Assembly: GCF_038502225.1 (NCBI RefSeq)
Contig: NC_091303.1
Coordinates: forward strand, 27,442,830 to 27,506,829
DNA from: Cherax quadricarinatus
Taxonomy: Eukaryota; Arthropoda; Malacostraca; Decapoda; Parastacidae
Length of the DNA stretch: 64,000 nucleotides
Direction: 5' to 3'
A program made the position numbers and the translations under genes. Within the stretch, counting starts at the first letter, position 1, and each line of letters begins with the position of its first letter. Positions 3,001 through 59,800 of the stretch are shown piece after piece. Below the pieces are notes generated by a model. The model did no database searches and was not told where the DNA came from. It saw only the letters and a program-made list of their open reading frames with translations.

Positions 3001-3366
3001 ACTACCTCTGGAGGAGCCATGTGGACACTACCTCTGGAGGAGCCGTGTGGACACAACCTCTGGAGGAGCCATGAGGACACTACCTGTGGAGCAGCCGTGT
3101 GGACACTGTGTTTGGAGGAGCCATATGGACACTACCTCTGGAGGAGCCGTGTGGACACTACGTCTGGAGCAGCCACGTGGATACTACCGCTGGTGGAGCC
3201 ATGTGGGCACTACCTTTGGAGCACCCGAGTGGACACTACCTCTGGAGCAGCCGTGTGGACACTACCTCTGGAGGAGCCATGTGGACACTATCTCTGGAGC
3301 AGCCATGTGGACACTACCTCTGAAGCAGCCGTGTGGACTCTACCTCTGGAGGAGCCATGTGGACAT
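1..3366. repeat. 26-bp minisatellite array I (continues beyond left edge)
   Basis: Tandem 26-bp units of the form GTGGACACTACCTCTGG followed by AGGAGCC(A/G)T fill this stretch, about 127 units in the window. The first 500 bases carry a GGAAACTACC variant, later ones GGACACTACC, with AGCAGCC, AGCACCC and GTAGACAC variants mixed in. Units differ by many point changes, so this array is older or less homogenised than the one at 44878-60862. Open frames on the plus strand come only from lack of stops in the unit. A 64-bp SINE tail interrupts it at 1373-1436. The right edge abuts a LINE-A fragment at 3370. Confidence 0.95.
1373..1436 (+). mobile_element. SINE 3' tail fragment inside array I
   Basis: The block ACCCTCCGGGGTTAAAAATC followed by CGAACGAAATC and (TTATC)n repeats matches the 3' end of the tRNA-derived SINE at 32033-32333 (there on the minus strand). 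Only the tail is present, so it is a strongly 5'-truncated insertion into the minisatellite. The array resumes directly at 1437. Confidence 0.75.
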
Positions 3367-15003: not shown

Positions 15004-18000
15004 ATGGATCAAAACTCGCATAAACTTTCTATATTAAGCTGGAATATTGCATCACTTAGAAAAAGACTTCCTGACCTTCATCATAAAGTAACCACTGAAC
15101 GCATTGATGTTGTGTGTCTACAAGAGTGCAGAGTCCCTGAAAAATCCCAACCCCCTAAATTACCATCATTTGTTGCATATAACCTCAAATCTACTAATTC
15201 TTGTGTTCTATATATTAAAAAATCACTTCCCCATCAACTTCTTGCACACAAGAAAACAGAGGGGCTACAGTATCACGGTGTTAGGATTTATATAGGGAAC
15301 TCTGCTCTCAACATATTTAACTTGTATGCTCCTGCTGATAAATTCAATTACTTGGAGCTCCCAACTTGTGCTTATTCTGAGCCTACTCTTATTATTGGCG
15401 ATTACAATGCGAGACACAAAAGCATTGGAAACTCACAGTTTGGTAATCGTAATGGTAATCAACTGTTGTCACTCTTAAACAGTCATGATAATGTCCAAAT
15501 TGTAGGTGATCTTGAACCCACACATATCTATGGAGGCGTCCTTGATCTGTGCCTGGGCTTCAACATTACTTCTGCCAGCTGTGAGTCTTCCATTGTAACA
15601 GATATAGCGTCTGATCATTTCCCTAGGCTAACCTCACTAGATATTTGTAATACTATCCTTCCTGGTGGGATATTCAAACGGAAACGTTTTAATGTTCCCA
15701 CAGATCAGCATGATGACTTTGTTGCACATGTGACTGACTGGTATAATTCCTATGAGTGTTCCTCTGTAGAGACCTTTAACAATGACCTTGTGAGCAGTAT
15801 TCAGAACTACTTAGAGCCGCCACTGCAACCTCTTGGTACTCTAAACCCAACAAACTTCCATAATAATCATACCTCCTTCAAGAACCATACTTATTACAAT
15901 GATTCTAAACTTCGTACACTGAAATGTACTGCTCGCAGACTAGGCCTAGCCTATAGAAAACATCGTACCCCTGGAATGCTGAGGCTCTTTCAAACCGCCC
16001 TTGCTGCTGCCAGAGAGCGTATGACAGAGCTGCGGCAAACAGACTGGGAAAAATTTGTCAACGGTCTTAATGCTCACACCCCACTTAGCCGGGCTTGGAG
16101 GGACATAAATAGAATTAAGGGTAACAGAACTGGGCAGATCGCGCACTCTCATCCCTTACATAGGGCGAATGAGTTAGTCATTGCTTGGGCTGCTACATCT
16201 AGCTATGACAATCTTCCCAGTACCACACAGGCAAAATTAAATGACAAATATGATGCAAGGGAGAGACTTGTTTGCTTTATGCTCAGCAAGGCAGATGATT
16301 GCAACATTCCTTTCACTAATTATGAACTTGATGCAGCACTAACTAAGGGCAACTCCACGTCGCCTGGTGAGGATGGTATTACTTACAACATACTCAGATT
16401 GCTGTGTCGAGTACCAGGTAATCCATTACTTGAATTATATAACATGAGCTATGTAACTGGGGAGCTCCCTCAATCTTGGACCAACAGCCTCATCATTCCA
16501 ATTCCTAAGCCCAATCAACAAAATGCATTTCGTCCAATATCTCTTACTAGCTGCTTGTGTAAAACATTTGAGAGAATGATTCTTAATCGTCTCATGTACA
16601 GAATCAAACAATTTTTGTCTCCCCGGTTACATGGTTTCATGCATGGAAGGAGCGTGCATCATTGCATAGCCACCTTTCTCACCCTGCACACTGACAGCTC
16701 ATACACTACCTTCCTTGACCTTAAATCCGCTTTCGATGTAGCCAACCGACATGTAATCATTAGTGAACTTGCCAGAATGGATGTTGGAGGATGGCTTCTC
16801 CGCTGGATTAAAGGCTACCTGTCCAACAGAAAATCGTCTGTGTTGTTCCAGGGACATAGAAGTGTAACTAAAGACTTTGAATTAGGAACCCCACAGGGAG
16901 GTGTGCTCAGTCCCACACTGTTCAATATTCTAATTAATGCATTACTTAATGCTATGCCTAGTCAGCCCCATCATTATGTGATTAGTTTTGCTGATGATAT
17001 AATGATTCACACCACCGGATTCTCCAACACCCAAAACATTCTTAATCATGTACTAGCCTCGTGTCAGGACCTGGGGTTGATAATCTCTACTGATAAAACA
17101 AAGATACTCAACAGGCGTCCTCCTCGACAGAGAGGCACAGTTCGTCAGATCCAATTGCATGATGGGTCTCTTCTAGAATATGTAAGCAGATACAGGTATC
17201 TAGGTTTTGAGGTTCCACTACTTGGACCTGTTGTAACAAGACTTTGTCGCCAATACAAAGAACGACTAAGAGCACTTAGAGTTGTAGCAGGGCTTCACCC
17301 CAGGTATGGTGCTAATGTTAAAATTGTGAAAATGATGTATCTTGCTTATATTAGATCATTGGTTGATTATGCTGCGCCACTACTTGCTCTTGTGTCTGAC
17401 TGGAAGCTTGGAGGGCTGGAAAAACTGCAGAACGAAGCAATGAGGATCATTTTAGGATGCCCTCGTACTGCCAAAATTTTAAATATGCAAAAAGAACTTG
17501 ATATTCCAAGCATCAGAGATCGTGTTACTGAAAGAAATATCCTAATTGGGGTTAATATGCTCAGGCAAGCTCATTCAAACCCCTGCACAGAAGCCCTCCA
17601 AACTTTCCTCAGCACTGGTGAACACTCCTCTAGGTGGATCGAAAAAACTGGAACCGACCTCCGCATGAATCAGATACATGATCTATGTCAAGTAAGGCAA
17701 CAGCGGCACTTCTCTGCTCCATGGAATATTACCCCATTCCAAACTACCATTCCTCCATTTCCCCCCAAACTACTTCTTAAACCACAACCAAAACCTCGCC
17801 TTGAAGCCAAACATGAGGCCTTAAGCTGTATTGATAACTTAGTCACACAGCACACACTCTCGCAAATTATTTACGCTGATGGTTCTGTTCACCAATCCAC
17901 TGGTGCAGCTGGTAGTGCTGCTGTTGTCGTACAGAGTGATGGCTCTCTTAAAGAAATTGGAGCACGCATCAATAATTGGGCCTCTACCCTTCAGACAGAA

Positions 18001-18424
18001 CTGTTTGCCATACTCCTTGCACTGAAATGCATCTATGTATCAAAGATTGACAGTTTAATTGTAACTGATTCTCTGTCATCCATAAATGCTCTCAACTCAT
18101 TAAGCATAAATTGTTGCATGCTTGTGTCAGAAGCCAGACACAGGTATGGTAGGATTGTGGACAGTGGAGTCAGAGTGCACATGCTGTGGATTCCATCTCA
18201 CATTGGTCTCCAGATGCATGATAGAACTGATAAATTGGCTAAGCTGTATGCTTTCAAAGAGAGAGTAGATTACAATCTTGGCTTGTCAGGTAGTAGTTTG
18301 AGAACAATAATACGAAAAGAACTTCAACTGAATTTTATGGACTTAAGGCTCAGGGAGATTGACACCAGTGAGTCCATCTATCATCATTCTATCATGCAGG
18401 AGGAGCCACATGTCTATAGTGCAT
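15004..18424 (+). pseudogene. LINE-I ORF2: APE endonuclease, RT and RNase H (interrupted)
   Basis: Starts at ATG 15004 and is open for 1140 codons until the LTR insertion. The APE endonuclease (residues about 8-210) shows LSWNIAS, QECR (E41), IIGDYNARH (D133, N135) and SDHF (D204, H205). RT (about 430-720) has SPGEDGITYN, FLDLKSAFDVAN, GTPQGGVLSPTLFN and FADD (662-665). RNase H (about 955-1085) has YADGS (D959), TELFAIL, VTDSLSS and WIPSHIGLQMHDRTD. Such proteins nick genomic DNA and copy LINE RNA at the nick. The EN-RT-RNase H order and a CCHC ORF1 place it in the I superfamily. The last residues before the break (EEPHVYSA) continue at 22777. The catalytic boxes look intact; the LTR element and a later deletion disable it. 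Confidence 0.9.
18420..18424. other. Target-site duplication, left (TGCAT)
   Basis: TGCAT at 18420-18424 recurs at 22772-22776 just after the 3' LTR. The uninterrupted LINE-I copy has a single TGCATCC at the same point (near 34049), which confirms the insertion site. Confidence 0.9.
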
Positions 18425-18763
18425 TGTAGTGATACTGGTCCTGTGGGGAGCAGCAGCAGGATAATACTGCACCACCTCTAGGGGCCCTTAACAACAACAA
18501 CAGTTTGGTGTGTGTCATGGGCACCAACACATGGTGTGTGATTCTCTCCTACTTGATCCATTTATCAGCGATGCAGATTACATGGTGAGTTTAAATATGT
18601 GGCCTGTAGTTATAACTTTTCTCTTGACATATGCAAGACATCACCATCCCTGTAGAAGCTATTATTAGATGTACTAGTCATTATATTTTGTTGTTGCAGA
18701 AGTACTATGAAGATTCTATGTTCAATAAAGCCTAGAGATAAGGCCTGTGTTTCTATCACAACA
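18425..18763 (+). repeat. 5' LTR (339 bp)
   Basis: Begins TGTAGTGATACTGG and ends TCTATCACAACA. It carries a TATA-like TATATTT at 18682-18688 and AATAAA at 18724-18729. With transcription starting about 30 bp after the TATA (near 18712), U3 would be about 287 bp and R plus U5 only about 52 bp, a very short R-U5. Confidence 0.93.
18682..18688 (+). promoter_or_regulatory. Candidate TATA box of the LTR promoter
   Basis: TATATTT, 30 bp upstream of 18712, the first base of the 18-nt segment complementary to the site just after the LTR. The spacing is that of a TATA-driven start. Confidence 0.55.
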
Positions 18764-18782
18764 ATTTATTGAACATAGAATC
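18764..18782 (+). promoter_or_regulatory. Probable primer-binding site, self-complementary
   Basis: TTTATTGAACATAGAATC (18765-18782) starts one base after the LTR and is the exact reverse complement of GATTCTATGTTCAATAAA at 18712-18729 in the LTR. There is no TGG at the LTR edge, so a tRNA 3' CCA end cannot pair in the usual place. Self-priming by the folded 5' end of the element's own RNA is known for Tf1/sushi-type elements; this layout fits that mode. Confidence 0.65.
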
Positions 18783-18825
18783 CTGGGCTACCTGGTGGTG
18801 ATCCTGCGCTAGACTACATCACAAC

Positions 18826-21800
18826 ATGGAGCGTTTACTGAAACCTGAGAGGCTAGACTGTGACCCCAGCTTATCAACGGCTGCTCAGGAATGGAAGCAC
18901 TGGTTTAAGACTTTCGAAAACTTCTTGGGAGCCCTTCCTAAAGAAGATCTAGATAAACTAAGTCTGCTCATCAATTTTGTGTCACCTAAGATATATGAGG
19001 CTATTTCTGAGTGTAATACCTACGAAGATGCTATCAAAACCCTCAAGTCTCAGTATATTAAACCTACAAATGAAATCTTTGCACGCTATCGCCTTGCAAC
19101 TCGCCGCCAGCAGATTGATGAGTCCTTAGAGGAATACTTTCAAGCACTGAAAATTTTAGGTAAGGACTGTCACTTCCAAGCAGTGACAGCTGCTCAGTAT
19201 TGTGAAGAGTCCATCAGGGATGCTTTTATCAGTGGCCTGCAATCACCAATAATAAGGCAGCGTTTATTGGAGAATAAAACTCTCGACTTAGCCGCTGCCT
19301 TTGACCAGGCAAGAGCTCTAGATTCAGCCCAGAAGAATTCTGAAGTATACAGTACCACTCAGCCTTCTCGAGTGGTAAGTGCTGCAATTCCTGACCAAGA
19401 CTCTTGCAATGAAGTTACTATGGAACCTGCCTCAGTGACAGCAGCAGCAGGTACGGTGTGTTTCTTTTGTGGTTTTTCAAGACATCCACGTCCAAAGTGT
19501 CCTGCTCGGGAAGCAATGTGCCATAAATGCCACAAGAAAGGTCACTTTGCTAAAGTATGTCGTGCTAATGCATCAACAAGAGCTAGTGCCTCCACACATT
19601 CCAGTGATCATGCGACTCTAGCAACAGTGACTTCTGCGGCTACTCCAAATTCACTGTCAAAGGCAGTTGTGAAAGTATTCATCAAAGGAACAGAAGTAGA
19701 TGGTCTTATTGATAGTGGCAGCTCAGAGAGTTTCATCAACCTTGACTTAGTTAAACGGCTCTCCTTGACTCTACATCACTCATCAGGTACCGTTTCCATG
19801 GCATCAACATCTCTCTCTATTCAGACCTTAGGGTTTTGTAAGGTAAATCTCAGAGTTAATGGAAAGGATTATCAAGATGTACATTTAGCTATTCTGCCAC
19901 AACTGTGCTCTGATGTTATCCTTGGTCAGGACTTTCAGAAGCTGCATGGTAGTGTCACCTTAACATATGGAGGTGAACTGCCTCCTCTTGTTGTCTGTGG
20001 ACTTAGCACTTTAAGGGTAGACCCACCAAAGCTGTTTGCAAATCTTACCGCGGATTGCCATCCTATATCAGCTAAGTCACGCCGCTATTCTTATGAGGAT
20101 CGGATGTTCATTGAGAAAGAAACTCAGAGGCTGCTGAAGGAGGGTATTATAGAACCGAGTGATTCCCCTTGGCGTGCACAGGTTGTTGTTGTTAAAGATG
20201 GTTATAGGAAACGGAGACTGGCTATCGATTACTCTGAGACAATCAACAAATTTACACTTCTTGATGGGTACCCTCTACCTCGAATTGACGATACAGTGAA
20301 CAAAATTGCTCAGTACTACGTGTTTAGCACAATTGATCTGCAGAGTGCCTATCATCAAGTCCCTATAAGGAATGAAGATAAACCATACACAGCGTTTCAG
20401 GCTAGTGATGGCCTGTATCAGTTTACCAGAGTCCCTTTTGGAGTCACCAATGGGGTAGCCTGCTTCCAACGAATTATGGATTCACTCATTCAGGAAGAGC
20501 AACTCATGGGAACCTACGCGTATTTAGATAATGTTACCATTTGTGGCAAGACCCAGGAGGAACATGATGCAAACCTTGATAAGTTTTTGGAAGCCGCCAA
20601 GAAGAAAAATATCAGTTACAATGAGGAAAAGTGCACTTTTTCAACTAAAAGGCTTAGCATCCTTGGTTATGTAGTGGAAGGAGGTTCAATATTCCCAGAC
20701 CCTGAACGACTACGACCTCTACGGGAACTTCCAATGCCTCAAGACAAAAAGTCACTCCGAAGAACTCTTGGTCTCTTTGCTTATTACTCACAATGGATCT
20801 ACAACTATTCAAGTAAAGTCCGCCCATTGAGTGCTACCACATTTCCTGTGACAAAGGAAGCAGAAGCCGCTTTCCATACTCTCAAACAGGACATTGAAAA
20901 CTCAGTAGTTCAAGCCATTGATGAGTCCCTACCATTCGAAGTGGAAACGGATGCATCTGACATTGCCATTGCTGCAGTCTTATCTCAGGCAGGACGACCA
21001 GTAGCCTTCTTTTCGAGAACTTTTCAAGGATCAGAGAAATGTTATGCTGCTGTAGAAAAGGAAGCCCAGGCCATCATAGAAGCAGTTCGCCACTGGAGGC
21101 ATTATTTAACTGGTAGACATTTCACCATAAGGACTGACCAACGGTCCGTGATGTATATGTTCGACAAGAGGCACAAAAGTAAGATAAAGAATGACAAGAT
21201 ATTACGCTGGAGGATGGAACTATCGTGTTATGACTTTGATATTCTGTACCGACCGGGTCAAGAGAACATCTCACCTGATGCATTCTCTAGGTCCCACTGT
21301 GGAGCAGCATGTCATGATTTGCAATCACTCTCAGCTCTCCACAAGGCTTTGTGTCACCCAGGAGTTACACGCCTGTACCATTTTGTCAAATCAAAGAACA
21401 TGCCCTACTCAGTGGAAGATGTGCGACAAGTGATCAGAGCATGCAGAGTATGTGCAGAGTGCAAGCCAAACTTTCATCAGCCAGAGAAGACTCATCTCAT
21501 AAAATCCACCCAGCCTTTCGAAAGATTGAATATAGATTTCAAAGGACCTCTACCAAGCACAAATCAGAATAGGTATTTCCTTAACATAGTAGATGAATAT
21601 TCAAGGTTTCCCTTTGTATTCCCCTGTGCAAATATGGCTGCTTCAACTGTTATTAGTTGTCTTTCACAGTTGTTCTCTATTTTTGGTATGCCAGCTTATA
21701 TCCATTCAGACAGGGGATCCTCGTTCATGAGTAACGAACTTCAGGAGTTTTTGGCTAGCAAAGGTATTGCCTGCAGCAGAACAACAAGCTACAACCCTCA

Positions 21801-22413
21801 AGGCAATGGTCAAGTGGAGCGGTTCAATGGTACTATATGGAAGGCAGTTACAATGACATTAAAGTCGCGCAATCTACCTGTTCAACACTGGCAAACTGTC
21901 CTACCTGATGCTCTTCACTCTATTAGATCACTGCTGTGCACAGCTACTAATGCAACCCCTCATGAAAGACTCCTCAACTATTCACGTCGTTCCTCTACGG
22001 GAGCCTCCGTGCCCACTTGGTTATGTCATCCTGGACCCGTTCTCCTGAAGAGTCACCGTAGGATGAACAAGACGGATCCTTTAGTGGAAGAGGTAGAGCT
22101 CCTGCAAGCTAATCCACATTACGCCCACATTCGCTACCAAAATGGTGAAGAGACTACAGTATCTACAAGACATTTAGCCCCAGTTGAAATCCCTATTAGT
22201 GTGGAATCTCAAGATACACCAATAGATGTGAAAGATGCTTCGTTTTCTCCTGGAAAGCCCATTGAGACTACCCCTATGGAAATAGAGGATTCTGCTCCAG
22301 CAGTTAATCAAACCCCGCTGGAAAATATCGAACCTGGTGAAGAGGCTCAAGGGCTACGAAGGTCGGGACGTGTACGTCGCCCACCTAACAGTTTGGGAGA
22401 TTACTGTCTCTGA
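18826..22413 (+). CDS. Gag-Pol polyprotein of the LTR retrotransposon
   Basis: One uninterrupted 1195-codon frame from ATG 18826 to TGA 22411. Gag: N-terminal helical part (about 1-200) and two CCHC knuckles, [14 protein letters not shown] (212-225) and [14 protein letters not shown] (about 233-246). Protease: LIDSGSS with D296. [12 protein letters not shown] (D504), [11 protein letters not shown] and YLDN (566-569), where most RTs have YxDD. RNase H: ETDASD (D709). Integrase: HHCC-like region ending CRVCAEC, then D904, D962 and E998 with exactly 35 residues between the last two. No chromodomain is evident at the C-terminus. Gag and Pol share one frame with no shift, so relative dosage must be set in another way. 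The protein would assemble particles, reverse-transcribe and integrate the element. It appears intact apart from the unusual YLDN. Confidence 0.93.
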
Positions 22414-22418
22414 TATTT

Positions 22419-22432
22419 TAGAAGGGGGAGAT
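22419..22432 (+). promoter_or_regulatory. Polypurine tract
   Basis: AGAAGGGGGAGAT lies directly before the 3' LTR (22433). It is the expected plus-strand primer made by RNase H. Confidence 0.85.
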
Positions 22433-22771
22433 TGTAGTGATACTGGTCCTGTGGGGAGCAGCAGCAGGATAATACTGCACCACCTCTAGGGGCCCTTAAC
22501 AACAACAACAGTTTGGTGTGTGTCATGGGCACCAACACATGGTGTGTGATTCTCTCCTACTTGATCCATTTATCAGCGATGCAGATTACATGGTGAGTTT
22601 AAATATGTGGCCTGTAGTTATAACTTTTCTCTTGACATATGCAAGACATCACCATCCCTGTAGAAGCTATTATTAGATGTACTAGTCATTATATTTTGTT
22701 GTTGCAGAAGTACTATGAAGATTCTATGTTCAATAAAGCCTAGAGATAAGGCCTGTGTTTCTATCACAACA
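22433..22771 (+). repeat. 3' LTR (339 bp)
   Basis: Same length and, by eye, the same sequence as the 5' LTR. AATAAA lies at 22732-22737. It is followed by the right TGCAT duplication (22772-22776). Confidence 0.93.
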
Positions 22772-22776
22772 TGCAT

Positions 22777-44745: not shown

Positions 44746-44877
44746 TGAGCTTCCTGGGAGGGACTTGCAGGTATGTGATATTAAATGAGAGGCGCGATAG
44801 TGATCATTTTTGTAATTAAAACCTTATAACATGTAAACCACATATTGTAAATTTTACAAGGAAATAAACATTTGAAT
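44746..44877 (+). other. LINE-like 3' tail at the array II edge
   Basis: Non-coding; ends AAGGAAATAAACATTTGAATTTG and passes directly into the first minisatellite unit (GAGGAGTCGTG). The tail resembles the end of the insertion at 42671-43050. Confidence 0.5.
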
Positions 44878-47800
44878 TTGGAGGAGTCGTGTGGAAACTA
44901 CCACTGGAGGAGTCGTGTGGACACTACCACTGGAGGAGTCGTGTGGACACTACCACTGGATGAGTCGTGTGGACACTACCACTGGAGGAGTCGTGTGGAC
45001 ACTACCACTGGAGGAGTCGTGTGGACACTACCACTGGAGGAGTCGTGTGGACACTACCACTGGAGGAGTCGTGTGGACACTACCACTGGAGGAGTCGTGT
45101 GGACACTACCACTGGAGGAGTCGTGTGGACACTACCACTGGAGGAGCCGTGTGGACACTACCACTGGAGGAGTCGTGTGGACACTACCACTGGAGGAGTC
45201 GTGTGGGCACTACCACTGGAGGAGTCGTGTGGACACTACCACTGGAGGAGTCGTGTGGACACTACCACTGGAGGAGTCGTGTGGACACTACCACTGGAGG
45301 AGTCGTGTGGACACTACCACTGGAGGAGTCGTGTGGACACTACCACTGGAGGAGTCGTGTGGACACTACCACTGGAGGAGCCGTGTGGACACTACCACTG
45401 GAGGAGTCGTGGACACGACCACTGGAGGAGTCGTGTGGACACTACCACTGGAGGAGTCGTGTGGACACTACCACTGGAGGAGTCGTGTGGACACTACCAC
45501 TGGAGGAGTCGTGTGGACACTACCACTGGAGGAGTCGTGTGGACACTACCACTGGAGGAGTCGTGTGGACACTACCACTGGAGGAGTCGTGTGGACACTA
45601 CCACTGGAGGAGTCGTGTGGACACTACCACTGGAGGAGCCGTGTGGACACTACCACTGGAGGAGTCGTGTGGACACTACCACTGGAGGAGTCGTGTGGAC
45701 ACTACCACTTGAGGAGTCGTGTGGACACTACCACTGGAGGAGTCGTGTGGACACTACCACTGGAGGAGTCGTGTGGACACTACCACTGGAGGAGTCGTGT
45801 GGACACTACCACTGGAGGAGTCGTGTGGACACTACCACTGGAGGAGTCGTGTGGACACTACCACTGGAGGAGTCGTGTGGACACTACCACTGGAGGAGTC
45901 GTGTGGACACTACCACTGGAGGAGTCGTGTGGACACTACCACTGGAGGAGTCGTGTGGACACTACCACTGGAGGAGTCGTGTGGACACTACCACTGGAGG
46001 AGTCGTGTGGACACTACCACTGGAGGAGTCGTGTGGACACTACCACTGGAGGAGTCGTGTGGACACTACCACTGGAGGAGTCGTGTGGACACTACCACTG
46101 GAGGAGTCGTGTGGACACTACCACTACCACTGGAGGAGTCGTGTGGACACTACCACTGGAGGAGTCGTGTGGTTACTACCACTGGAGGAGTCGTGTGGAC
46201 ACTACCACTGGAGGAGTCGTGTGGTTACTACCACTGGAGGAGTCGTGTGGACACTACCACTGGAGGAGTCGTGTGGACACTACCACTGGAGGAGTCGTGT
46301 GGACACTACCACTGGAGGAGTCGTGTGGTTACTACCACTGGAGGAGTCGTGTGGACACTACCACTGGAGGAGTCGTGTGGACACTACCACTGGAGGAGTC
46401 GTGTGGACACTACCACTGGAGGAGTCGTGTGGACACTACCACTGGAGGAGTCGTGTGGACACTACCACTGGAGGAGTCGTGTGGACACTACCACTGGAGG
46501 AGTCGTGTGGACACTACCACTGGAGGAGTCGTGTGGTTACTACCACTGGAGGAGTCGTGTGGACACTACCACTGGAGGAGTCGTGTGGTTACTACCACTG
46601 GAGGAGTCGTGTGGACACTACCACTGGAGGAGTCGTGTGGACACTACCACTGGAGGAGTCGTGTGGACACTACCACTGGAGGAGTCGTGTGGACACTACC
46701 ACTGGAGGAGTCGTGTGGACACTACCACTGGAGGAGTCGTGTGGACACTACCACTGGAGGAGTCGTGTGGACACTACCACTGGAGGAGTCGTGTGGACAC
46801 TACCACTGGAGGAGTCGTGTGGACACTACCACTGGAGGAGTCGTGTGGACACTACCACTGGAGGAGTCGTGTGGACACTACCACTGGAGGAGTCGTGTGG
46901 ACACTACCACTGGAGGAGTCGTGTGGACACTACCACTGGAGGAGTCGTGTGGACACTACCACTGGAGGAGTCGTGTGGACACTACCACTGGAGGAGTCGT
47001 GTGGACACTACCACTGGAGGAGTCGTGTGGACACTACCACTGGAGGAGTCGTGTGGACACTACCACTGGAGGAGTCGTGTGGACACTACCACTGGAGGAG
47101 TCGTGTGGACACTACCACTGGAGGAGTCGTGTGGACACTACCACTGGAGGAGTCGTGTGGACACTACCACTGGAGGAGTCGTGTGGACACTACCACTGGA
47201 GGAGTCGTGTGGACACTACCACTGGAGGAGTCGTGTGGACACTACCACTGGAGGAGTCGTGTGGACACTACCACTGGAGGAGTCGTGTGGACACTACCAC
47301 TGGAGGAGTCGTGTGGACACTACCACTGGAGGAGTCGTGTGGACACTACCACTGGAGGAGTCGTGTGGACACTACCACTGGAGGAGTCGTGTGGAGGAGT
47401 CGTGTGGACTACCACTGGAGGAGTCGTGTGGACACTACCACTGGAGGAGTCGTGTGGACACTACCACTGGAGGAGTCGTGTGGACACTACCACTGGAGGA
47501 GTCGTGTGGACACTACCACTGGAGGAGTCGTGTGTGGAGGAGTCGTGTGGACACTACTACTGGAGGACTACCACTGGAGGAGTCGTGTGGACACTACCAC
47601 TGGAGGAGTCGTGTGGACACTACCACTGGAGGAGTCGTGTAGACACTACCACTGGAGGAGTCGTGTGGACACTACCACTGGAGGAGTCGTGTGGACACAA
47701 CCACAGGAGGAGTCGTGTGGACACAACCAATGGAGGAGTCGTGTGGACACAACCACTGGAGGAGTCGTGTGGACACTACCACTGGAGGAGTCGTGTGGAC

Positions 47801-50800
47801 ACTACCACTGGAGGAGTCGTGTGGACACTACCACTGGAGGAGTCGTGTGGACACTACCACTGGAGGAGTCGTGTTGACACTACCCTGGAGGACGTGTGGA
47901 GGAGTCGTGTGGACACTACCACTGGAGGAGTCGTGTGGACACTACCACTGGAGGAGTCGTGTGGACACTACCACTGGAGGAGTCGTGTGGACACTACCAC
48001 TGGAGGAGTCGTGTGGACACTACCACTGGAGGAGTCGTGTGGACACTACCACTGGAGGAGTCGTGTGGACACTACCACTGGAGGAGTCGTGTGGACACTA
48101 CCACTGGAGGAGTCGTGTGGACACTACCACTGGAGGAGTCGTGTGGACACTACCACTGGAGGAGTCGTGTGGACACTACCACTGGAGGAGTCGTGTGGAC
48201 ACTACCACTGGAGGAGTCGTGTGGACACTACCACTGGAGGAGTCGTGTGGTTACTACCACTGGAGGAGTCGTGTGGACACTACCACTGGAGGAGTCGTGT
48301 GGACACTACCACTGGAGGAGTCGTGTGGACACTACCACGGGAGGAGTCGTGTGGACACTACCACTGGAGGAGTCGTGTGGACACTACCACTGGAGGAGTC
48401 GTGTGGAGTCACTACCACTGGAGGAGTCGTGTGGACACTACCACTGGAGGAGTCGTGTGGACACTACCACTGGAGGAGTCGTGTGGACACTACCACTGGA
48501 GGAGTCACTACCACTGGAGGAGTCGTGTGGACACTACCACTGGAGGAGTCGTGTGGACACGACCACTGGACGAGTCGTGTGGACACTACCACTGGAGGAG
48601 TCGTGTGGACACTACCACTGGAGGAGTCGTGTGGACACTACCACTGGAGGAGTCGTGTGGACACTACCACTGGAGGAGTCGTGTGGACACTACCACTGGA
48701 GGAGTCGTGTGGACACTACCACTGGAGGAGTCGGGTGGACACTACCACAGTCGTGTGGACACTACCACTGGAGTCGTGTGGACACTACCACTGGAGGAGT
48801 CGTGTGGACACTACCACTGGAGGAGTCGTGTGGACACTACCACTGGAGGAGTCGTGTGGACACTACCACTGGAGGAGTCGTGGGGACCCTACCACTGGAG
48901 GACTGGACACTAGGAGTCGTGTGGACACTACCACTGGAGGAGTCGTGTGGACACTACCACTGGAGGAGTCGTGTGGACACTACCACTGGAGGAGTCGTGT
49001 GGACACTACCACTGGAGGAGTCGTGTGGACACTACCACTGGAGGAGTCGTGTGGACAGTACCACTGGAGGAGTCGTGTGGACACTACCACTGGAGGAGTC
49101 GTGTGGACACTACCACTGTCGTGTGGACACTACCACTGGAGGAGTCGTGTGGACACTACCACTGGAGGAGTCACTACCACTGGAGGAGTCGTGTGGACAC
49201 TAACACTGGAGGAGTCGTGTGGACACTACCACTGGAGGAGTCGTGTGGACACTACCACTGGAGGAGTCGTGTGGACACTACCACTGGAGGAGTCGTGTGG
49301 ACACTAGCACTGGAGGAGTCGTGTGGACACTACCACTGGAGGAGTCGTGTGGACACTACCACTGGAGGAGTCGTGTGGACACTACCACTGGAGGAGTCGT
49401 GTGGACACTACCACTGGGGGAGTCGTGTGGACAGTCGTGTGGACACTACCACTGGAGGAGTCGTGTGGACACTACCACTGGAGGAGTCGTGTGGACACTA
49501 CCACTGGAGGAGTCGTGTGGACACTACCACTGGAGGAGTCGTGTGGACACTACCACTGGAGGAGTCGTGTGGACACTACCACTGGAGGAGTCGTGTGGAG
49601 TCGTGTGGACACTACCACTGGAGGAGTCGTGTGGACACTACCACTGGAGGAGTCGTGTGGACACTACCACTGGAGGAGTCGTGTGGACACTACCACTGGA
49701 GGAGTCGTGTGGACACTACCACTGGAGGAGTCGTGTGGACACTACCACTGGAGGAGTCGTGTGGACACTACCACTGGAGGAGTCGTGTGGACACTACCAC
49801 TGGAGGAGTCGTGTGGACACTACCACTGGAGGAGTCGTGTGGACACTACCACTGGAGGAGTCGTGTGGACACTACCACTGGAGGAGTCGTGTGGACACTA
49901 CCACTGGAGGAGTCGTGTGGACACTACCACTGGAGGAGTCGTGTGGACACTACCACTGGAGGAGTCGTGTGGACACTACCACTGGAGGAGTCGTGTGGAC
50001 ACTACCACTGGAGGAGTCGTGTGGACACTACCACTGGAGGAGTCGTGTGGACACTACCACTGGAGGAGTCGTGTGGACACTACCACTGGAGGAGTCGTGT
50101 GGACACTACCACTGGAGGAGTCGTGTGGACACTACCACTGGAGGAGTCGTGTGGACACTACCACTGGAGGAGTCGTGTGGACACTACCACTGGAGGAGTC
50201 GTGTGGACACTACCACTGGAGGAGTCGTGTGGACACTACCACTGGAGGAGTCGTGTGGACACTACCACTGGAGGAGTCGTGTGGACACTACCACTGGAGG
50301 AGTCGTGTGGACACTACCACTGGAGGAGTCGTGTGGACACTACCACTGGAGGAGTCGTGTGGGCACTACCACTGGAGGAGTCGTGTGGACTGGGAGTCGG
50401 GTGGACACTACCACTGGAGGAGTCGTGTGGACACTACCACTGGAGGAGTCGTGTGGACACTACCACTGGAGGAGTCGTGTGGACACTACCACTGGAGGAG
50501 TCGTGTGGACACTACCACTGGAGGAGTCGTGTGGACACTACCACTGGAGGAGTCGTGTGGACACTACCACTGGAGGAGTCGTGTGGACACTACCACTGGA
50601 GGAGTCGTGTGGACACTACCACTGGAGGAGTCGTGTGGACACTACCACTGGAGGAGTCGTGTGGACACTACCACTGGAGGAGTCGTGTGGACACTACCAC
50701 TGGAGGAGTCGTGTGGACACTACCACTGGAGGAGTCGTGTGGACACTACCACTGGAGGAGTCGTGTGGACACTACCACTGGAGGAGTCGTGTGGACACTA

Positions 50801-53800
50801 CCACTGGAGGAGTCGTGTGGACACTACCACTGGAGGAGTCGTGTGGACACTACCACTGGAGGAGTCGTGTGGACACTACCACTGGAGGAGTCGTGTGGAC
50901 AGTCGTGTGGACACTACCACTGGAGGAGTCGTGTTACCACTGGAGGAGTCGTGTGGACACTACCACTGGAGGAGTCGTGTGGACACTACCACTGGAGGAG
51001 TCGTGTGGACACTACCACTGGAGGAGTCGTGTGGACACTACCACTGGAGGAGTCGTGTGGACACTACCACTGGAGGAGTCGTGTGGACACTACCACTGGA
51101 GGAGTCGTGTGGACACTACCACTGGAGGAGTCGTGTGGACACTACCACTGGAGGAGTCGTGTGGACACTACCACTGGAGGAGTCGTGTGGACACTACCAC
51201 TGGAGGAGTCGTGTGGACACTACCACTGGAGGATTCGTGTGGACACTACCACTGGAGGAGTCGTGTGGACACTACCACTGGAGGAGTCGTGGAGGAGTCG
51301 TGTGGACACTACCACTGGAGGACACTACCACTGGAGGAGTCGTGTGGACACTACCACAGTCGTGTACCACTGGAGGAGTCGTGTGGACACTACACTGGAG
51401 GACTGGAGGAGTCGTGTGGACACTACCACTGGAGGAGTCGTGTGGACACTACCACTGGAGGAGTCGTGTGGACACTACCACTACGTGTGGTTACACTGGA
51501 GGAGTCGTGTGGAGTCACTACCACTGGAGGAGTCGTGTGGACACTACCACTGGAGGAGTCGTGTGGACACTACCACTGGAGGAGTCGTGTGGACACTACC
51601 ACTGGAGGAGTCGTGTGGACACTACCACTGGAGGAGTCGTGTGGACACTACCACTGGAGGAGTCGTGTGGTTACTACCACTGGAGGAGTCGTGTGGACAC
51701 TACCACTGGAGGAGTCGTGTGGTTACTACCACTGGAGGAGTCGTGTGGACACTACCACTGGAGGAGTCGTGTGGACACTACCACTGGAGGAGTCGTGTGG
51801 ACACTACCACTGGAGGAGTCGTGTGGTTACTACCACTGGAGGAGTCGTGTGGACACTACCACTGGAGGAGTCGTGTGGTTACTACCATTGGAGGAGTCGT
51901 GTGGACACTACCACTGGAGGAGTCGTGTGGTTACTACCACTGGAGGAGTCGTGTGGACACTACCACTGGAGGAGTCGTGTGGACACTACCACTGGAGGAG
52001 TCGTGTGGACACTACCACTGGAGGAGTCGTGTTCACACTACCACTGGAGGAGTCGTGTGGACACTACCACTGGAGGAGTCGTGTGGACACTACCACTGGA
52101 GGAGTCGTGTGGACACTACCACTGGAGGAGTCGTGTGGACACTACCACTGGAGGAGTCGTGTGGACACTACCACTGGAGGAGTCGTGTGGACACTACCAC
52201 TGGAGGAGTCGTGTGGACACTACCACTGGAGGAGTCGTGTGGACACTACCACTGGAGGAGCCGTGTGGACACTACCACTGGGGGAGTCGTGTGGACACTA
52301 CCACTGGAGGAGCCGTGTGGACACTACCCCTGGGGGAGTCGTGTGGACACTACCACTGGAGGAGTCGTGTGGACACTACCACTGGAGGAGTCGTGTGGAC
52401 ACTACAACTGGAGGAGTTGTGTGGACACTACCACTGGAGGAGTCGTGTGGACACTACCACTGGAGGAGTCGTGTGGGCACTACCACTGGAGGAGTCGTGT
52501 GGACATTACCACTGGAGGAGTCGTGTGGACACTACCACTGTAAGAGCCTTGTGGACACTACCACTGGAGGAGTCGTGTGGACATTACCACTGGAGGAGTC
52601 GTGTGGACATTACCACTGGAGGAGTCGTGTGGACACTTCCACTGTAAGAGCCGTGTGGACACTACCACTGGAGGAGTCGTGTGGACATTACCACTGGAGG
52701 AGTCGTGTGGACATTACCACTGGAGGAGTCGTGTGGACATTACCACTGCAGAAGTCGTGTGGACATTACCACTGGAGGAGTCGTGTGGACACTACCACTG
52801 GAGGAGTCGTGTGGACATTACCACTGGAGGAGTCGTGTGGCCATTACCACTGGAGGAGTCGTGTGGACATTACCACTGGAGGAGTCGTGTGGACACTACC
52901 ACTGGAGGAGTCGTGTGGACATTACCACTGGAGGAGTCGTGTGGACATTACCACTGGAGGAGTCGTGTGGACACTACCACTGGAGGAGTCGTGTGGACAT
53001 TACCACTCGTGGAGTCGTGTGGACATTGCCACTGGAGGAGTCGTGTGGACATTACCACTGGAGGAGTCGTGTGGACATTACCACTGGAGGAGTCGTGTGG
53101 ACATTACCACTGGAGGAGTCGTGTGGACATTACCACTGGAGGAGTCGTGTGGACATTACCACTGGAGGAGTCGTGTGGACATTACCACTGGAGAAGTCGT
53201 GTGGACACTACCACTGGAGGAGTCGTGTGGACACTACCACTGGAGGAGTCGTGTGGACACTACCACTGGAGGAGTCGTGTGGACATTACCACTGGAGGAG
53301 TCGTGTGGACACTACCACTGGAGGAGTCGTGTGGACATTACCACTGGAGAAGTCGTGTGGACACTACCACTGGAGGAGTCGTGTGGACACTACCACTGGA
53401 GGAGACGTGTGGACATTACCACTGGAGGAGTCGTGTGGACATTACCACTGGAGGAGTCGTGTGGACATTACCACTGGAGGAGTCGTGTGGACACTACCAC
53501 TGGAGGAGTCGTGTGGACACTACCACTGGAGGAGTCGTGTGGACACTACCACTGGAGGAGTCGTGTGGACACTACCTCTGGAGGAGTCGTGTGGACATTA
53601 CCACTGGAGGAGTCGTGTGGACATTACCACTGGAGGAGTCGTGAGGACATTAACACTGGAGGAGTCGTGTGGACATTACCACTGGAGGAGTCGTGTGGAC
53701 ATTACCACTGGAGGAGTCGTGTGGACATTACCACTGGAGGAGTCGTGTGGACATTACCACTGGAGGAGTCGTGTGGACACTACCACTGGAGGAGTCGTGT

Positions 53801-56800
53801 GGACACTACCACTGGAGGAGTCGTGTGGACACTACCACTGGAGGAGTCGTGTGGACACTACCACTGGAGGAGTCGTGTGGACACTACCACTGGAGGAGTC
53901 GTGTGAACACTACCACTGGAGGAGTCGTGTGGACACTACCACTGGAGGAGTCGTGTGGACACTACCACTGGAGGAGTCGTGTGGACACTACCACTGGAGG
54001 AGAACACTACCACTGGAGGAGTCGTGTGGACACTACCACTGGAGGAGTCGTGTGGACACTACCACTGGAGGAGACGTGTGGGCACTACCACTGGAAGAGC
54101 CGTTTGGACACTACCACTGGAAGAGTCGTGTGGACACTACCACTGGAGGAGCCGTGTGGACTCTAACACTGGAGGAGTCGTGTGGACACTACCACTGGAG
54201 GAGCCGTGTGGGCACTACCACTGGAGGAGTCGTGTGGACACTACCTCTGGAGGAGTCGTGTGGACACTACCACTGGAGGAGTCGTGTGGACACTACCACT
54301 GGAGGAGCCGTGTGGACACTACCACTGGAGGAGTCGTGTGGACACTACCACTGGAGGAGTCGTGTGGACACTACCACTGGAGGAGTCGTGTGGACACTAC
54401 CACTGGAGGAGTCGTGTGGACACTACCACTGGAGGAGTCGTGTGGACACTACCACTGGAGGAGTCGTGTGGACATTACCACTGGAGGAGTCGTGTGGACA
54501 TTACCACTGGAGGAGTCGTGTGGACACTACCACTGGAGGAGTCGTGTGGACACTACCACCGGAGGAGTCGTGTGAACTACCACTGGAGGAGTCGTGTGGA
54601 CATTACCACTGGAGGAGTCGTGTGGACACTACCACTGGAGGAGTCGTGTGGACACTACCACTGGAGGAGTCGTGTGGACATTACCACTGGAGGAGTCGTG
54701 TGGACATTACCACTGGAGGAGTCGTGTGGACATTACCACTGGAGGAGTCGTGTGGACATTACCACTGGAGGAGTCGTGTGGACATTACCACTGGAGGAGT
54801 CGTGTGGACATTACCACTGGAGGATTCGTGTGGACATTACCACTGGAGGATTCGTGTGGACATTACCACTGGAGGAGTCGTGTGGACACTACCACTGGAG
54901 GAGTCGTGTGGACATTACCACTGGAGGAGTCGTGTGGACATTACCACTGGAGGAGTCGTGTGGACATTACCACTGGAGGAGTCGTGTGGACACTACCACT
55001 GGAGGAGTCGTGTGGACACTACCACTGGAGGAGCCGTGTGGACATTACCACTGGAGGAGTCGTGTGGACATTACAACTGGAGGAGTCGTGTGGACATTAC
55101 CACTGGAGGAGTCGTGTGGACACTACCACTGGAGGAGTCGTGTGGTCACTACCACTGGAGGAGCCGTGTGGACATTACCACTGGAGGAGTCGTGTGGACA
55201 TTACCACTGGAGGAGTCGTGTGGACATTACCACTGGAGGAGTCGTGTGGACATTACCACTGGAGGATTCGTGTGGACATTACCACTGGAGGAGTCGTGTG
55301 GACACTACCACTGGAGGAGTCGTGTGGACACTACCACTGGAGGAGTCGTGTGGTTACTACCACTGGAGGAGTCGTGTGGACACTACCACTGGAGGAGTCG
55401 TGTGGACACTACCACTGGAGGAGTCGTGTGGACACTACCACTGGAGGAGTCGTGTGGACACTACCACTGGAGGAGTCGTGTGGACACTACCACTGGAGGA
55501 GTCGTGTGGTTACTACCACTGGAGGAGTCGTGTGGACACTACCACTGGAGGAGTCGTGTGGTTACTACCATTGGAGGAGTCGTGTGGACACTACCACTGG
55601 AGGAGTCGTGTGGTTACTACCACTGGAGGAGTCGTGTGGACACTACCACTGGAGGAGTCGTGTGGACACTACCACTGGAGGAGTCGTGTGGACACTACCA
55701 CTGGAGGAGTCGTGTGGACACTACCACTGGAGGAGTCGTGTGGACACTACCACTGGAGGAGTCGTGTGGACACTACCACTGGAGGAGTCGTGTGGACACT
55801 ACCACTGGAGGAGTCGTGTGGACACTACCACTGGAGGAGTCGTGTGGACACTACCACTGGAGGAGTCGTGTGGACACTACCACTGGAGGAGTCGTGTGGA
55901 CACTACCACTGGAGGAGTCGTGTGGACACTACCACTGGAGGAGTCGTGTGGACACTACCACTGGAGGAGTCGTGTGGACACTACCACTGGAGGAGTCGTG
56001 TGGACACTACCACTGGAGGAGTCGTGTGCACACTACCACTGGAGGAGTCGTGTGGACACTACCACTGGAGGAGTCGTGTGGACACTACAACTGGAGGAGT
56101 TGTGTGGACACTACCACTGGAGGAGTCGTGTGGACACTACCACTGGAGGAGTCGTGTGGGCACTACCACTGGAGGAGTCGTGTGGACATTACCACTGGAG
56201 GAGTCGTGTGGACACTACCACTGTAAGAGCCTTGTGGACACTACCACTGGAGGAGTCGTGTGGACATTACCACTGGAGGAGTCGTGTGGACATTACCACT
56301 GGAGGAGTCGTGTGGACACTTCCACTGTAAGAGCCGTGTGGACACTACCACTGGAGGAGTCGTGTGGACATTACCACTGGAGGAGTCGTGTGGACATTAC
56401 CACTGGAGGAGTCGTGTGGACATTACCACTGGAGAAGTCGTGTGGACATTACCACTGGAGGAGTCGTGTGGACACTACCACTGGAGGAGTCGTGTGGACA
56501 TTACCACTGGAGGAGTCGTGTGGACATTACCACTGGAGGAGTCGTGTGGACATTACCACTGGAGGAGTCGTGTGGACATTACCACTGGAGGAGTCGTGTG
56601 GACATTACCACTGGAGGAGTCGTGTGGACATTACCACTGGAGGAGTCGTGTGGACACTACCACTGGAGGAGTCGTGTGGACACTACCACTGGAGGAGTCG
56701 TGTGGACATTACCAATGGAGGAGTCGTGTGGACACTACCACTGGAGGAGTCGTGTGGACATTACCACTGGAGGAGTCGTGTGGACATTACCACTGGAGGA

Positions 56801-59800
56801 GTCGTGTGGACATTACCACTGGAGGAGTCGTGTGGACATTACCACTGGAGAAGTCGTGTGGACACTACCACTGGAGGAGTCGTGTGGACACTACCACTGG
56901 AGGAGTCGTGTGGACACTACCACTGGAGGAGTCGTGTGGACATTACCACTGGAGGAGTCGTGTGGACACTACCACTGGAGGAGTCGTGTGGACATTACCA
57001 CTGGAGAAGTCGTGTGGACACTACCACTGGAGGAGTCGTGTGGACACTACCACTGGAGGAGACGTGTGGACATTACCACTGGAGGAGTCGTGTGGACATT
57101 ACCACTAGAGGAGTCGTGTGGACATTACCACTGGAGGAGTCGTGTGGACACTACCACTGGAGGAGTCGTGTGGACACTACCACTGGAGGAGTCGTGTGGA
57201 CACTACCACTGGAGGAGTCGTGTGGACACTACCTCTGGAGGAGTCGTGTGGACATTACCACTGGAGGAGTCGTGTGGACATTACCACTGGAGGAGTCGTG
57301 TGGACATTAACACTGGAGGAGTCGTGTGGACATTACCACTGGAGGAGTCGTGTGGACATTACCACTGGAGGAGTCGTGTGGACATTACCACTGGAGGAGT
57401 CGTGTGGACATTACCACTGGAGGAGTCGTGTGGACACTACCACTGGAGGAGTCGTGTGAACACTACCACTGGAGGAGTCGTGTGGACACTACCACTGGAG
57501 GAGTCGTGTGGACACTACCACTGGAGGAGTCGTGTGGGCACTACCACTGGAAGAGCCGTTTGGACACTGCCACTGGAAGAGTCGTGTGGACACTACCACT
57601 GGAGGAGCCGTGTGGACTCTACCACTGGAGGAGTCGTGTGGACACTACCACTGGAGGAGCCGTGTGGGCACTACCACTGGAGGAGTCGTGTGGACACTAC
57701 CTCTGGAGGAGTCGTGTGGACACTACCACTGGAGGAGTCGTGTGGACACTACCACTGGAGGAGCCGTGTGGACACTACCACTGGAGGAGTCGTGTGGACA
57801 CTACCACTGGAGGTGTCGTGTGGACACTACCACTGGAGGAGTCGCGTGGACACTACCACTGAAGGAGTCGTGTGGACATTACCACTGGAGGAGTCGTGTG
57901 GACACTACCACTGGAGGAGTCGTGTGGACACTACCACTGGAGGAGTCGTGTGGACATTACCACTGGAGGAGTCGTGTGGACATTACCACTGGAGGAGTCG
58001 TGTGGACACTACCACTGGAGGAGTCGTGTGGACACTACCACTGGAGGAGTCGTGTGAACATTACCACTGGAGGAGTCGTGTGGACATTACCACTGGAGGA
58101 GTCGTGTGGACACTACCACTGGAGGAGTCGTGTGGACACTACCACTGGAGGAGTCGTGTGGACATTACCACTGGAGGAGTCGTGTGGACATTACCACTGG
58201 AGGAGTCGTGTGGACATTACCACTGGAGGAGTCGTGTGGACATTACCACTGGAGGAGTCGTGTGGACATTACCACTGGAATAGTCGTGTGGACATTACCA
58301 CTGGAGGATTCGTGTGGACATTACCACTGGAGGATTCGTGTGGACATTACCACTGGAGGAGTCGTGTGGACACTACCACTGGAGGAGTCGTGTGGACATT
58401 ACCACTGGAGGAGTCGTGTGGACATTACCACTGGAGGAGTCGTGTGGACATTACCACTGGAGGAGTCGTGTGGACACTAACACTGGAGGAGTCGTGTGGA
58501 CACTACCACTGGAGGAGCCGTGTGGACATTACCACTGGAGGAGTCGTGTGGACATTGCAACTGGAGGAGTCGTGTGGACATTACCACTGGAGGAGTCGTG
58601 TGGACACTACCACTGGAGGAGTCGTGTGGTCACTACCACTGGAGGAGCCGTGTGGACATTACCACTGGAGGAGTCGTGTGGACATTACCACTGGAGGAAT
58701 CGTGTGGACATTACCACTGGAGGAGTCGTGTGGACATTACCACTGGAGGATTCGTGTGGACATTACCACTGGAGGAGTCGTGTGGACACTACCACTGGAG
58801 GAGTCGTGTGGACACTACCACTGGAGGAGTCGTGTGGACATTTCCACTGAAGGAGTCGTGTGGATATTACCACTGGAGGAGTCGTGTGGACACTACCACT
58901 GGAGGAGCCGTGTGGACATTACCACTGGAGGAGTCGCGTGGACATTACCACTGGAGGAGTCGTGTGGACATTACCACTGGAGGAGTCGTGTGGACATTAC
59001 CACTGGAGGAGTCGTGTGGACACTATCACTGGAGGAGTCGTGTGGACACTACCACTGGAGGAGTCGTGTGGACATTACCACTGGAGGAGTCGTGTGGACA
59101 TTACCACTGGAGGAGTCGTGTGGACATTACCACTGGAGGAGTCGTGTGGACATTACCACTGTAGGAGTCGTGTGGACATTACCACTGGAGGAGTCGTGTG
59201 GACATTACCACTGGAGGAGTCGTGTGGACATTACCACTGGAGGAGTCGTGTGGACATTACCACTGGAGGAGTCGTGTGGACATTACCACTGGAGGAGTCA
59301 TGTGGATACTACCACTGGAGGAGTCGTGTGGACACTACCACTGGAGGAGTCGTGTGGACATTACCACTGGAGGAGTCGTGTGGACACTACCACTGGAGGA
59401 GTCGTGTGGACATTACCACTGGAGGAGTCGTGTGGACATTACCAGTGAAGGAGTCGTGTGGACATTACCACTGGATGGGTCGTGTGGACATTACCACTGG
59501 AGAAGTCGTGTGGACATAACCACTGGAGGAGTCGTGTGGACATTACCACCAGAGGAGTCGTGTGGACACTACCACTGGAGGAGTCGTGTGGACATTACCA
59601 CTGGATGAGTCGTGTGGACATTACCACTGGAGGAGTCGTGTGGATACTACCACTGGAGGAGTCGAGTGGACACTACCACTGGAGGAGTCGTGTGGACACT
59701 ACCACTGGAGGAGTCGTGTGGACATTACCACTGGAGGAGTCGTGTGGACACTACCACTGGAGGAGTCGTGTGGACACTACCACTGGAGGAGTCGTGTGGA

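What the first reader, a model, noticed from the sequence alone, without database searches (positions are those of the whole stretch)
18682..18782. LTR element with an 18-nt self-complementary primer site: probable self-priming
Just after the 5' LTR, 18765-18782 is the exact reverse complement of 18712-18729 inside the LTR. A TATATTT lies 30 bp before 18712, so the predicted RNA would begin exactly with the complementary 18 nt, and no TGG for tRNA pairing sits at the LTR edge. Tf1 and sushi-type elements prime from their own RNA 5' end, with about 11 nt paired. Here the match is longer, R-U5 is only about 52 bp, and AATAAA lies within the priming segment itself. No chromodomain is seen, so this may be a separate lineage using the trick.
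Basis: partly seen in the sequence, partly recalled or inferred. Interest (0 to 1): 0.8.

Follow-up and report, generated by a model that had tools for sequence, protein, structure and literature searches.

The report
Self-priming animal gypsy retrotransposon
A young gypsy-type mobile element carries, just after its first terminal repeat, an 18-letter site that pairs with a stretch of its own RNA, and two distant relatives keep that pairing with quite different letters, so it very probably starts copying itself from its own RNA instead of borrowing a cell tRNA.

Summary
18765-18782 is the exact reverse complement of 18712-18729. It starts one base after the 5' LTR (18425-18763) of an intact, young Ty3/gypsy element (18425-22771, duplication TGCAT, identical LTRs). 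Shuffles never gave such a match (0 of 5000).

The decisive new evidence is covariation. Both relatives whose DNA could be found (63% and 59% identical protein) carry a different complementary pair at the corresponding place: 14 and 13 nt. In all three, the primer's 3' end is a poly(A) signal (AATAAA or ATTAAA). Two gypsy elements outside the clade showed no such pairing. No TGG (tRNA signature) lies in the first 20 nt after the LTR. Self-priming by LTR-derived RNA, as in Tf1, is the best explanation (0.85).

The family has no chromodomain, so it is not filed as Tf1/sushi; it looks like a separate animal lineage using the trick. Its place in an RT tree was not tested.

The supposed TATA box lies inside a 115-bp GT-AG segment of U3 (18585-18699) that is precisely missing at 16 places in the genome, including both LTRs of three full-length insertions: apparently a spliced intron. 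A transcription start at 18712 is plausible but unproven.

The parts
18420..18424 (+). Target-site duplication TGCAT, 5' copy (3' copy 22772-22776)
18425..18763 (+). 5' LTR, 339 bp, TGTAGTGA...TCACAACA
   Evidence: identical to the 3' LTR
18585..18699 (+). 115-bp GT-AG intron-like segment in U3 (GTGAGT...TTGCAG); precisely absent from both LTRs of three other full-length insertions
18682..18689 (+). TATATTTT, possible TATA box 30 bp before 18712; also lies just before the 3' end of the intron-like segment
18712..18729 (+). Self-primer segment GATTCTATGTTCAATAAA (second copy in the 3' LTR at 22720-22737)
18724..18729 (+). Poly(A) signal AATAAA forming the 3' end of the primer segment
   Evidence: AATAAA or ATTAAA at the same place in L022 and L021
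18730..18763 (+). R/U5 stretch between primer and LTR end; predicted template of the minus-strand strong-stop DNA; GCCTAG (18730-18735) can pair with CTGGGC (18783-18788), its GCCT with AGGC in a local hairpin
18765..18782 (+). Primer-binding site TTTATTGAACATAGAATC, exact complement of 18712-18729, one base after the LTR
18826..22413 (+). Single gag-pol ORF, 1195 aa: gag, two CCHC-type zinc knuckles (seen in the sequence), protease, RT (YLDN), RNase H, integrase; no chromodomain matched
22420..22432 (+). Polypurine tract AGAAGGGGGAGAT directly before the 3' LTR
22433..22771 (+). 3' LTR

Best explanation
The element is a young Ty3/gypsy LTR retrotransposon that primes minus-strand DNA synthesis with its own RNA. 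The LTR-encoded 18 nt (18712-18729) fold back on the primer-binding site (18765-18782). RNase H of the element's own RT cuts the RNA between 18729 and 18730 to free a 3' end. RT extends it over U5 and the rest of R (18764 to 18730), and this strong-stop DNA is transferred to the same stretch at the 3' end of the RNA. Shown: the pairing, its exact place, different but complementary pairs in two relatives, its presence in all 26 young copies sampled, the absence of a tRNA signature at the edge, and recent insertion. Inferred from Tf1: the cut, the extension and the transfer. The primer segment ends in the poly(A) signal in all three families, so one short segment probably serves 3'-end formation in the 3' LTR and priming at the 5' end (inference).
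For: Exact 18-nt complement one base after the LTR, 0 of 5000 shuffles. Relatives L021 (63% identity) and L022 (59%), the only 2 relatives among 40 matched stretches in genome contigs, have 14-nt and 13-nt complements of unrelated sequence next to an ...ACA LTR end, 0 of 5000 shuffles each. In all three the primer ends in AATAAA or ATTAAA. RNA folds have z = -4.07, -3.71 and -3.91, with the primer-PBS helix as the main stem and a small hairpin directly after the primer (the stretches were chosen to hold the helix, so z is not independent of it). The exact 71-nt primer-U5-PBS unit is in 39 of 39 loci examined, which are 26 distinct copies, and both arms are unchanged in 4 of 4 loci of a subfamily with altered U5. 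Of four older copies (about 2% diverged) one is truncated; the other three keep the primer, and two keep the whole PBS. Two gypsy elements outside the clade (L043, L049) show no edge complement; L049 has a TGG-type stretch instead. No TGG in the first 20 nt after the LTR in any of the three. Copies are young: of 20 fetched, LTR pairs are identical in 17 of the 18 that could be compared without gaps, and 15 of 20 show a direct duplication of 5-6 bp.
Against: No transcript end, primer-cDNA junction or RNase H cut was observed. The covariation rests on three families, because the protein search of the window's own genome did not complete and DNA searches there returned only the same family in the loci examined. 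L021 and L022 hold one LTR each, so their LTR ends were inferred (from ...ACA and position, knowing the complement) and not fixed by a second LTR; their offset of one base and their shuffle tests lean on that choice. The genome's tRNA set could not be scanned. A TATA box is not evident 30 bp upstream of the primer in L021 and L022. The second, Tf1-like duplex (GCCTAG with CTGGGC) is seen in the window but not at the same place in L021 or L022. One older copy has a PBS change (L075).
Confidence: 0.85

Rival explanations
1. Self-priming, but from a transcript that starts upstream in U3 (before 18585) and is spliced across 18585-18699, so that the primer is an internal RNA segment and not the RNA's 5' end. 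Since nothing 5' of the cut at 18729/18730 would be copied into the LTR, a spliced leader would do no harm.
For: A 115-bp GTGAGT...TTGCAG segment is missing exactly at 16 places (reversed-pattern control 0). Three full-length insertions have both LTRs without it, with 5-bp duplications and intact primer and PBS. These LTRs and that of L083 lie on at least two different U3 backgrounds. The rearranged copy L083 carries exon 1-exon 2-primer. The TATA-like stretch lies inside this segment.
Against: Splicing of the 3' LTR copy of U3 in the genomic RNA would give the same intronless copies with the start at 18712. The complement ends exactly at 18712, as expected if the primer RNA starts there, and TATATTTT lies 30 bp upstream.
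Confidence: 0.3
2. A host tRNA or tRNA fragment primes synthesis, and the inverted repeat is only an RNA hairpin used for packaging, dimerisation or control of translation.
For: TGG occurs at 18784-18786, 20 nt past the LTR. A cap-proximal 18-bp stem would be expected to affect translation (inference). The host's tRNAs were not scanned.
Against: No TGG in the first 20 nt after the LTR in any of three families; in L021 the first is at about 30 nt, in the start codon (ATGG), in L022 at about 52 nt. The complement sits next to the LTR end in all three.
Confidence: 0.08
3. The inverted repeat is a chance match or an assembly artefact.
For: None found; complements of 10 nt or more at the edge occur in 9, 3 and 15 of 5000 shuffles for the three families.
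Against: 0 of 5000 shuffles reach the real length in each of three families; 26 distinct copies carry the unit.
Confidence: 0.01

Closest known systems
Tf1/sushi group (chromoviruses: Tf1, Tf2, Tj1, sushi and others)
   Same: PBS complementary to a segment of the element's own 5' LTR instead of a tRNA (PMC4600332, PMC10085805, passages read); the primer-PBS duplex can have further duplexes beside it ('pretzel', PMC10085805); sushi LTRs also have AATAAA unusually close to the LTR's 3' end (PMC3601003, passage read).
   Different: No chromodomain matched here or in the relatives scanned; primer 18, 14 and 13 nt (11 nt in Tf1 is recalled); the poly(A) signal forms the primer's 3' end; an intron-like U3 segment; RT motif YLDN.
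TAR lineage of plant Ty1/copia (Houba, Osr-1) and Tcn1 clade
   Same: Self-priming predicted from a PBS complementary to the LTR (PMC6317226, passages read). [quoted passage not shown]
   Different: TAR is Ty1/copia; Tcn1 elements are chromoviruses. This element is Ty3/gypsy without a matched chromodomain, with relatives in animals.
Ty3 (yeast)
   Same: Best solved-structure match for RT-RNase H (7q5b, 4ol8); same PR-RT-RH-IN order.
   Different: Ty3 uses a tRNA primer (recalled).
Dictyostelid Skipper
   Same: Ty3/gypsy elements most of which lack TGG after the LTR.
   Different: Skipper has a polypyrimidine tract and no complement in its LTR, and is a chromovirus (PMC5006619, passages read).

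Membership tests
Ty3/gypsy LTR retrotransposon | Direct LTRs TG..CA, 4-6 bp target duplication, domain order PR-RT-RH-IN | tested here: met
Tf1/sushi group | Self-priming PBS: complement in own 5' LTR beginning 0-5 bp after the LTR | tested here: met
   criterion as in PMC6317226 (at least 10 bp, 0-5 bp after the LTR). Sequence criterion only, priming not observed
Tf1/sushi group | Integrase with C-terminal chromodomain | tested here: not met
   No chromodomain in the element (E up to 0.001, E up to 0.1) nor among the families listed for the 17 members scanned, none shown in the precomputed Pfam lists of the 120 listed relatives
Tf1/sushi group | Groups with Tf1/sushi in an RT/IN tree | not tested
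   No Tf1 or sushi reference sequences were obtained
Tf1/sushi group | Three-duplex 'pretzel' RNA around primer and PBS | tested here: inconclusive
   GCCTAG-CTGGGC in the window only; local hairpin beside the primer in all three
tRNA-primed gypsy element | TGG 0-5 nt after the LTR | tested here: not met
tRNA-primed gypsy element | Post-LTR bases match a tRNA 3' end of the species | not tested
   tRNA scan of the genome did not complete; the window itself has no tRNA gene

The most novel reading that the evidence does not exclude
A large, widespread clade of animal Ty3/gypsy elements without chromodomain evolved or kept self-priming outside Tf1/sushi. In it the primer and the poly(A) signal are one and the same segment, so PBS, primer and 3'-end signal must co-evolve. 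The window's family adds a U3 intron that can be spliced out and fixed in both new LTRs while primer and PBS stay intact, which fits a 5' leader that is never copied into the LTR.
Probability: 0.55. Interest if true: 0.72.

Novelty: new variant of a known kind. Interest (0 to 1): 0.62.

Why it matters
In what I could read, self-priming among Ty3/gypsy elements is tied to one chromodomain-bearing group. A second, chromodomain-free lineage with relatives in animals, and with a young high-copy member, would show that the mechanism is not a single clade's oddity and would give an animal system to test it. The overlap of primer and poly(A) signal would explain a very short R-U5 and makes a clear prediction: any change in the poly(A) signal must be matched in the PBS. 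It also matters for annotation, since pipelines that look only for a tRNA match after the LTR would call these elements 'no PBS'.

Tried and rejected
tRNA priming was rejected as the main reading: no TGG at the LTR edge in three families. A tRNA scan of the window found none, and one of the whole genome did not complete. Relatives were sought in viral contigs twice (5 and 6 stretches matched a pattern, none a relative), in plasmids (one distant gypsy circle, kept as a control) and in genome contigs (2 of 40 stretches). A third element outside the clade, L045 (24% identity), was looked at but its 5' end is not in the locus, so it was dropped as a control. Other families in the window's genome were sought by DNA with the RT regions of L021 and L022 (40 places scored of 701 and of 487 candidates). 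Of the loci cut out, 4 of 4 and 6 of 6 are older copies of the same family; the other places were not examined, so no further family was obtained. A pattern for a gag motif gave 0 matches, controls 0. A pattern for other self-primed families gave 25 places, with 13 in the controls: 7 of 25 belong to the window's family or its subfamily by their letters; the other 18 were not examined further. I first thought that the exact end of the complement fixes the transcription start at 18712; the U3 intron made me lower that. I first read the primer-U5 junction in rearranged copy L083 as a fossil of self-priming; the junction letters alone occur, antisense, in every normal copy, so only its U3 side and its end at LTR base 306 are informative, and one copy proves nothing. 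P0001's contig length (3892 nt) is close to one intronless LTR plus interior; this was not followed.

Full report
What is there. The finding lies in an intact LTR retrotransposon at 18425-22771 (4347 bp). The LTRs are 339 bp, identical, TG...CA, flanked by the 5-bp duplication TGCAT; a polypurine tract AGAAGGGGGAGAT stands directly before the 3' LTR. It has inserted at the end of a non-LTR retrotransposon ORF (15004-18429, endonuclease-RT-RNase H). One ORF of 1195 aa (18826-22413) holds gag, protease, RT, RNase H and integrase. The nearest solved structure is Ty3, so it is a Ty3/gypsy element. The host genome is held without a name (3.95 Gb).

18765-18782 is the exact complement of 18712-18729, starting one base after the LTR. 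Among 5000 dinucleotide shuffles of the LTR plus leader none gave a complement of 18 nt starting 0-5 nt after the LTR; the longest was 12.

It is kept within the family. The 416-bp query with LTR, PBS and gag start gave 1547 candidates; the 40 scored all matched over its full length at about 100%. I examined 39 loci, which are 26 distinct copies: the exact 71-nt primer-U5-PBS unit is in 39 of 39. Of 20 copies fetched, LTR pairs have no mismatch in 17 and one in 1 of the 18 that could be compared without gaps; 15 of 20 show a direct duplication of 5-6 bp (one of them in a run of G) and 5 do not, among them two rearranged copies. The family has moved recently. In a subfamily (L069, L070, L073, L074) U5 and the bases before the primer have changed, but both arms are unchanged (4 of 4). 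Of four older copies (about 2% diverged) one is truncated; the other three keep the primer, and two keep the PBS fully while one has a change at its last base.

It covaries between families. The protein family is large: 1472 database proteins at E up to 0.001 among 7988 candidates scored, the best 120 listed; names given include Actinostola, Trichuris, Trichinella, Scyliorhinus, Hypanus and Narcine, most have none. DNA was obtainable for two, both contaminant contigs of bacterial bins: L021 (63% identity) and L022 (59%), the only 2 relatives among 40 stretches matched. In L021, TATTGTTGATTAAA (372-385) is complementary to 437-450; in L022, TAATGTAATAAAA (3275-3287) to 3338-3350. Each site starts one base after an LTR end that I put at ...ACA; 0 of 5000 shuffles reach it. 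These contigs hold a single LTR, so the LTR end is inferred and was chosen knowing the complement; that weakens the exact offset and the shuffle figure, not the pairing. The letters differ completely between families, the pairing and its place do not. Two gypsy elements outside the clade served as controls. L043 (35% identity; recorded as a Wolbachia plasmid) has one 12-nt inverted repeat elsewhere but none at its LTR edge. L049 (25-28%) has no inverted repeat of 10 nt or more in the 560 bases examined, and a TGG-type stretch; its LTR edge was not fixed.

A shared detail. In all three families the last bases of the primer are a poly(A) signal: CAATAAA, GATTAAA, GTAATAAAA. The predicted RNA folds all have the primer-PBS helix as main stem with a small hairpin directly after the primer (z -4.07, -3.71, -3.91; a longer stretch of the window gives -3.02). 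A second duplex of the kind described for Tf1, GCCTAG (18730-18735) with CTGGGC (18783-18788), is possible in the window but not at the same place in the relatives.

How it most likely works. By analogy with Tf1 (PMC4600332 and PMC10085805, passages read), the LTR-derived RNA segment pairs with the PBS, RNase H cuts after ...CAATAAA, and RT extends into U5. Pairing and covariation are shown; cut, extension and transfer are inferred. If plus-strand synthesis copies the primer RNA, as tRNA primers are copied (recalled), the PBS is rebuilt from the LTR at each cycle, which would keep the match exact (inference).

Where the RNA starts. TATATTTT at 18682 lies 30 bp before 18712, which suits a start at 18712. 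But 18585-18699 is a 115-bp GTGAGT...TTGCAG segment. Its exact removal gives a junction found at 16 places in the genome, with none for the reversed control pattern. Of these I fetched three element pairs (C14, C65, C87): both LTRs lack the segment, the duplications are AACAG, ACTCT and AATAT, and primer and PBS are intact. The intronless LTRs, with that of L083, sit on at least two different U3 backgrounds. I read this as splicing of U3 in element RNA, fixed by reverse transcription. It can occur in the 3' LTR part of the RNA, so it does not by itself move the start. Whether intronless copies moved again is not shown; L085-L088 share private differences, which would fit that or an intron-bearing parent. 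In the subfamily the TATA-primer distance is 27 bp. The start at 18712 stays plausible, not shown.

One rearranged copy, L083, joins spliced U3 and primer (sense, ending at LTR base 305) to antisense U5 (340 to 306), then to antisense gag. This is the order expected for a strong-stop DNA extended from an LTR-derived primer and then wrongly transferred, but a template switch through the 18-nt repeat would also give it. It is one copy and I do not rest on it.

Comparison. Self-priming is reported for Tf1/sushi, for the Tcn1 clade and for the Ty1/copia TAR lineage (PMC6317226, passages; PMC4600332; PMC10085805), although one Tcn1-like element showed no evidence of it (PMC2864245, passage). Tf1/sushi elements carry a chromodomain; none was among the families listed for the 17 members scanned here. 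I therefore do not file it as Tf1/sushi, while holding that it works like Tf1. Skipper elements of dictyostelids mostly lack TGG but also lack a complement (PMC5006619, passages). Sushi LTRs have AATAAA unusually close to the LTR end (PMC3601003, passage), which fits the short R-U5 here. My searches for self-priming in chromodomain-free animal gypsy elements listed no paper that reports it in title, abstract start or the passages I opened (one search listed 20 of 3960). Surveys of crustacean, mollusc and annelid LTR elements were opened by term search only: the crustacean survey gives tRNA-type sites for some elements (PMC3587641, passages), the other two hold no mention of the PBS terms I sought (PMC6238403; PMC8556966), nor does the Troyka paper (PMC12440569). 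A phrase search for an intron in an LTR listed 4 papers, none opened. Most subscription papers are not held; Levin 1995 was not.

Limits. Three families carry the covariation; the protein search of the host genome did not complete; no RNA data were at hand; the clade was not placed in a tree.

Noticed in passing
18585-18699 and 22593-22707; G000 C14:48383840, C65:23463138, C87:13551013: 115-bp GT-AG intron-like segment in U3, precisely absent at 16 places genome-wide and from both LTRs of the three full-length insertions looked at: apparently an LTR intron lost by splicing.
   Followed up: partly
RT of the ORF 18826-22413 (YLDN, residues 566-569): The RT active-site motif is YxDN instead of YxDD in 79 of the 110 relatives where the script found the motif (31 YLDD; 10 of 120 not matched). 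A frequent change at a catalytic position would merit a look.
   Followed up: partly
L083:2515-2700: Rearranged copy with spliced U3 and primer joined to antisense U5 ending at LTR base 306, then antisense gag: resembles a self-primed strong-stop DNA with a wrong transfer.
   Followed up: partly
18718-18735: The primer segment contains an ATG opening a five-codon upstream ORF (MFNKA) that ends in U5; it would lie in the primer-PBS stem and the hairpin beside it.
   Followed up: no
L043 (NZ_CP087956.1): A 5.3-kb record filed as a Wolbachia plasmid looks like a gypsy retrotransposon circle with one LTR, probably from the moth host.
   Followed up: partly
L021 (JAAESD010000556.1), L022 (JABSRZ010000027.1): Contigs in bacterial bins are animal-type retrotransposons; the ends of both overlap as in a one-LTR circle.
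   Followed up: partly
L027: A copy with an internal deletion and a 123-bp inverted piece of its own pol, as from template switching.
   Followed up: no
44872-60631: About 16 kb of tandem repeat open in several frames, repeating a unit read as VDTTTGGVVWTLPLEESCGHYHWRSR.
   Followed up: no
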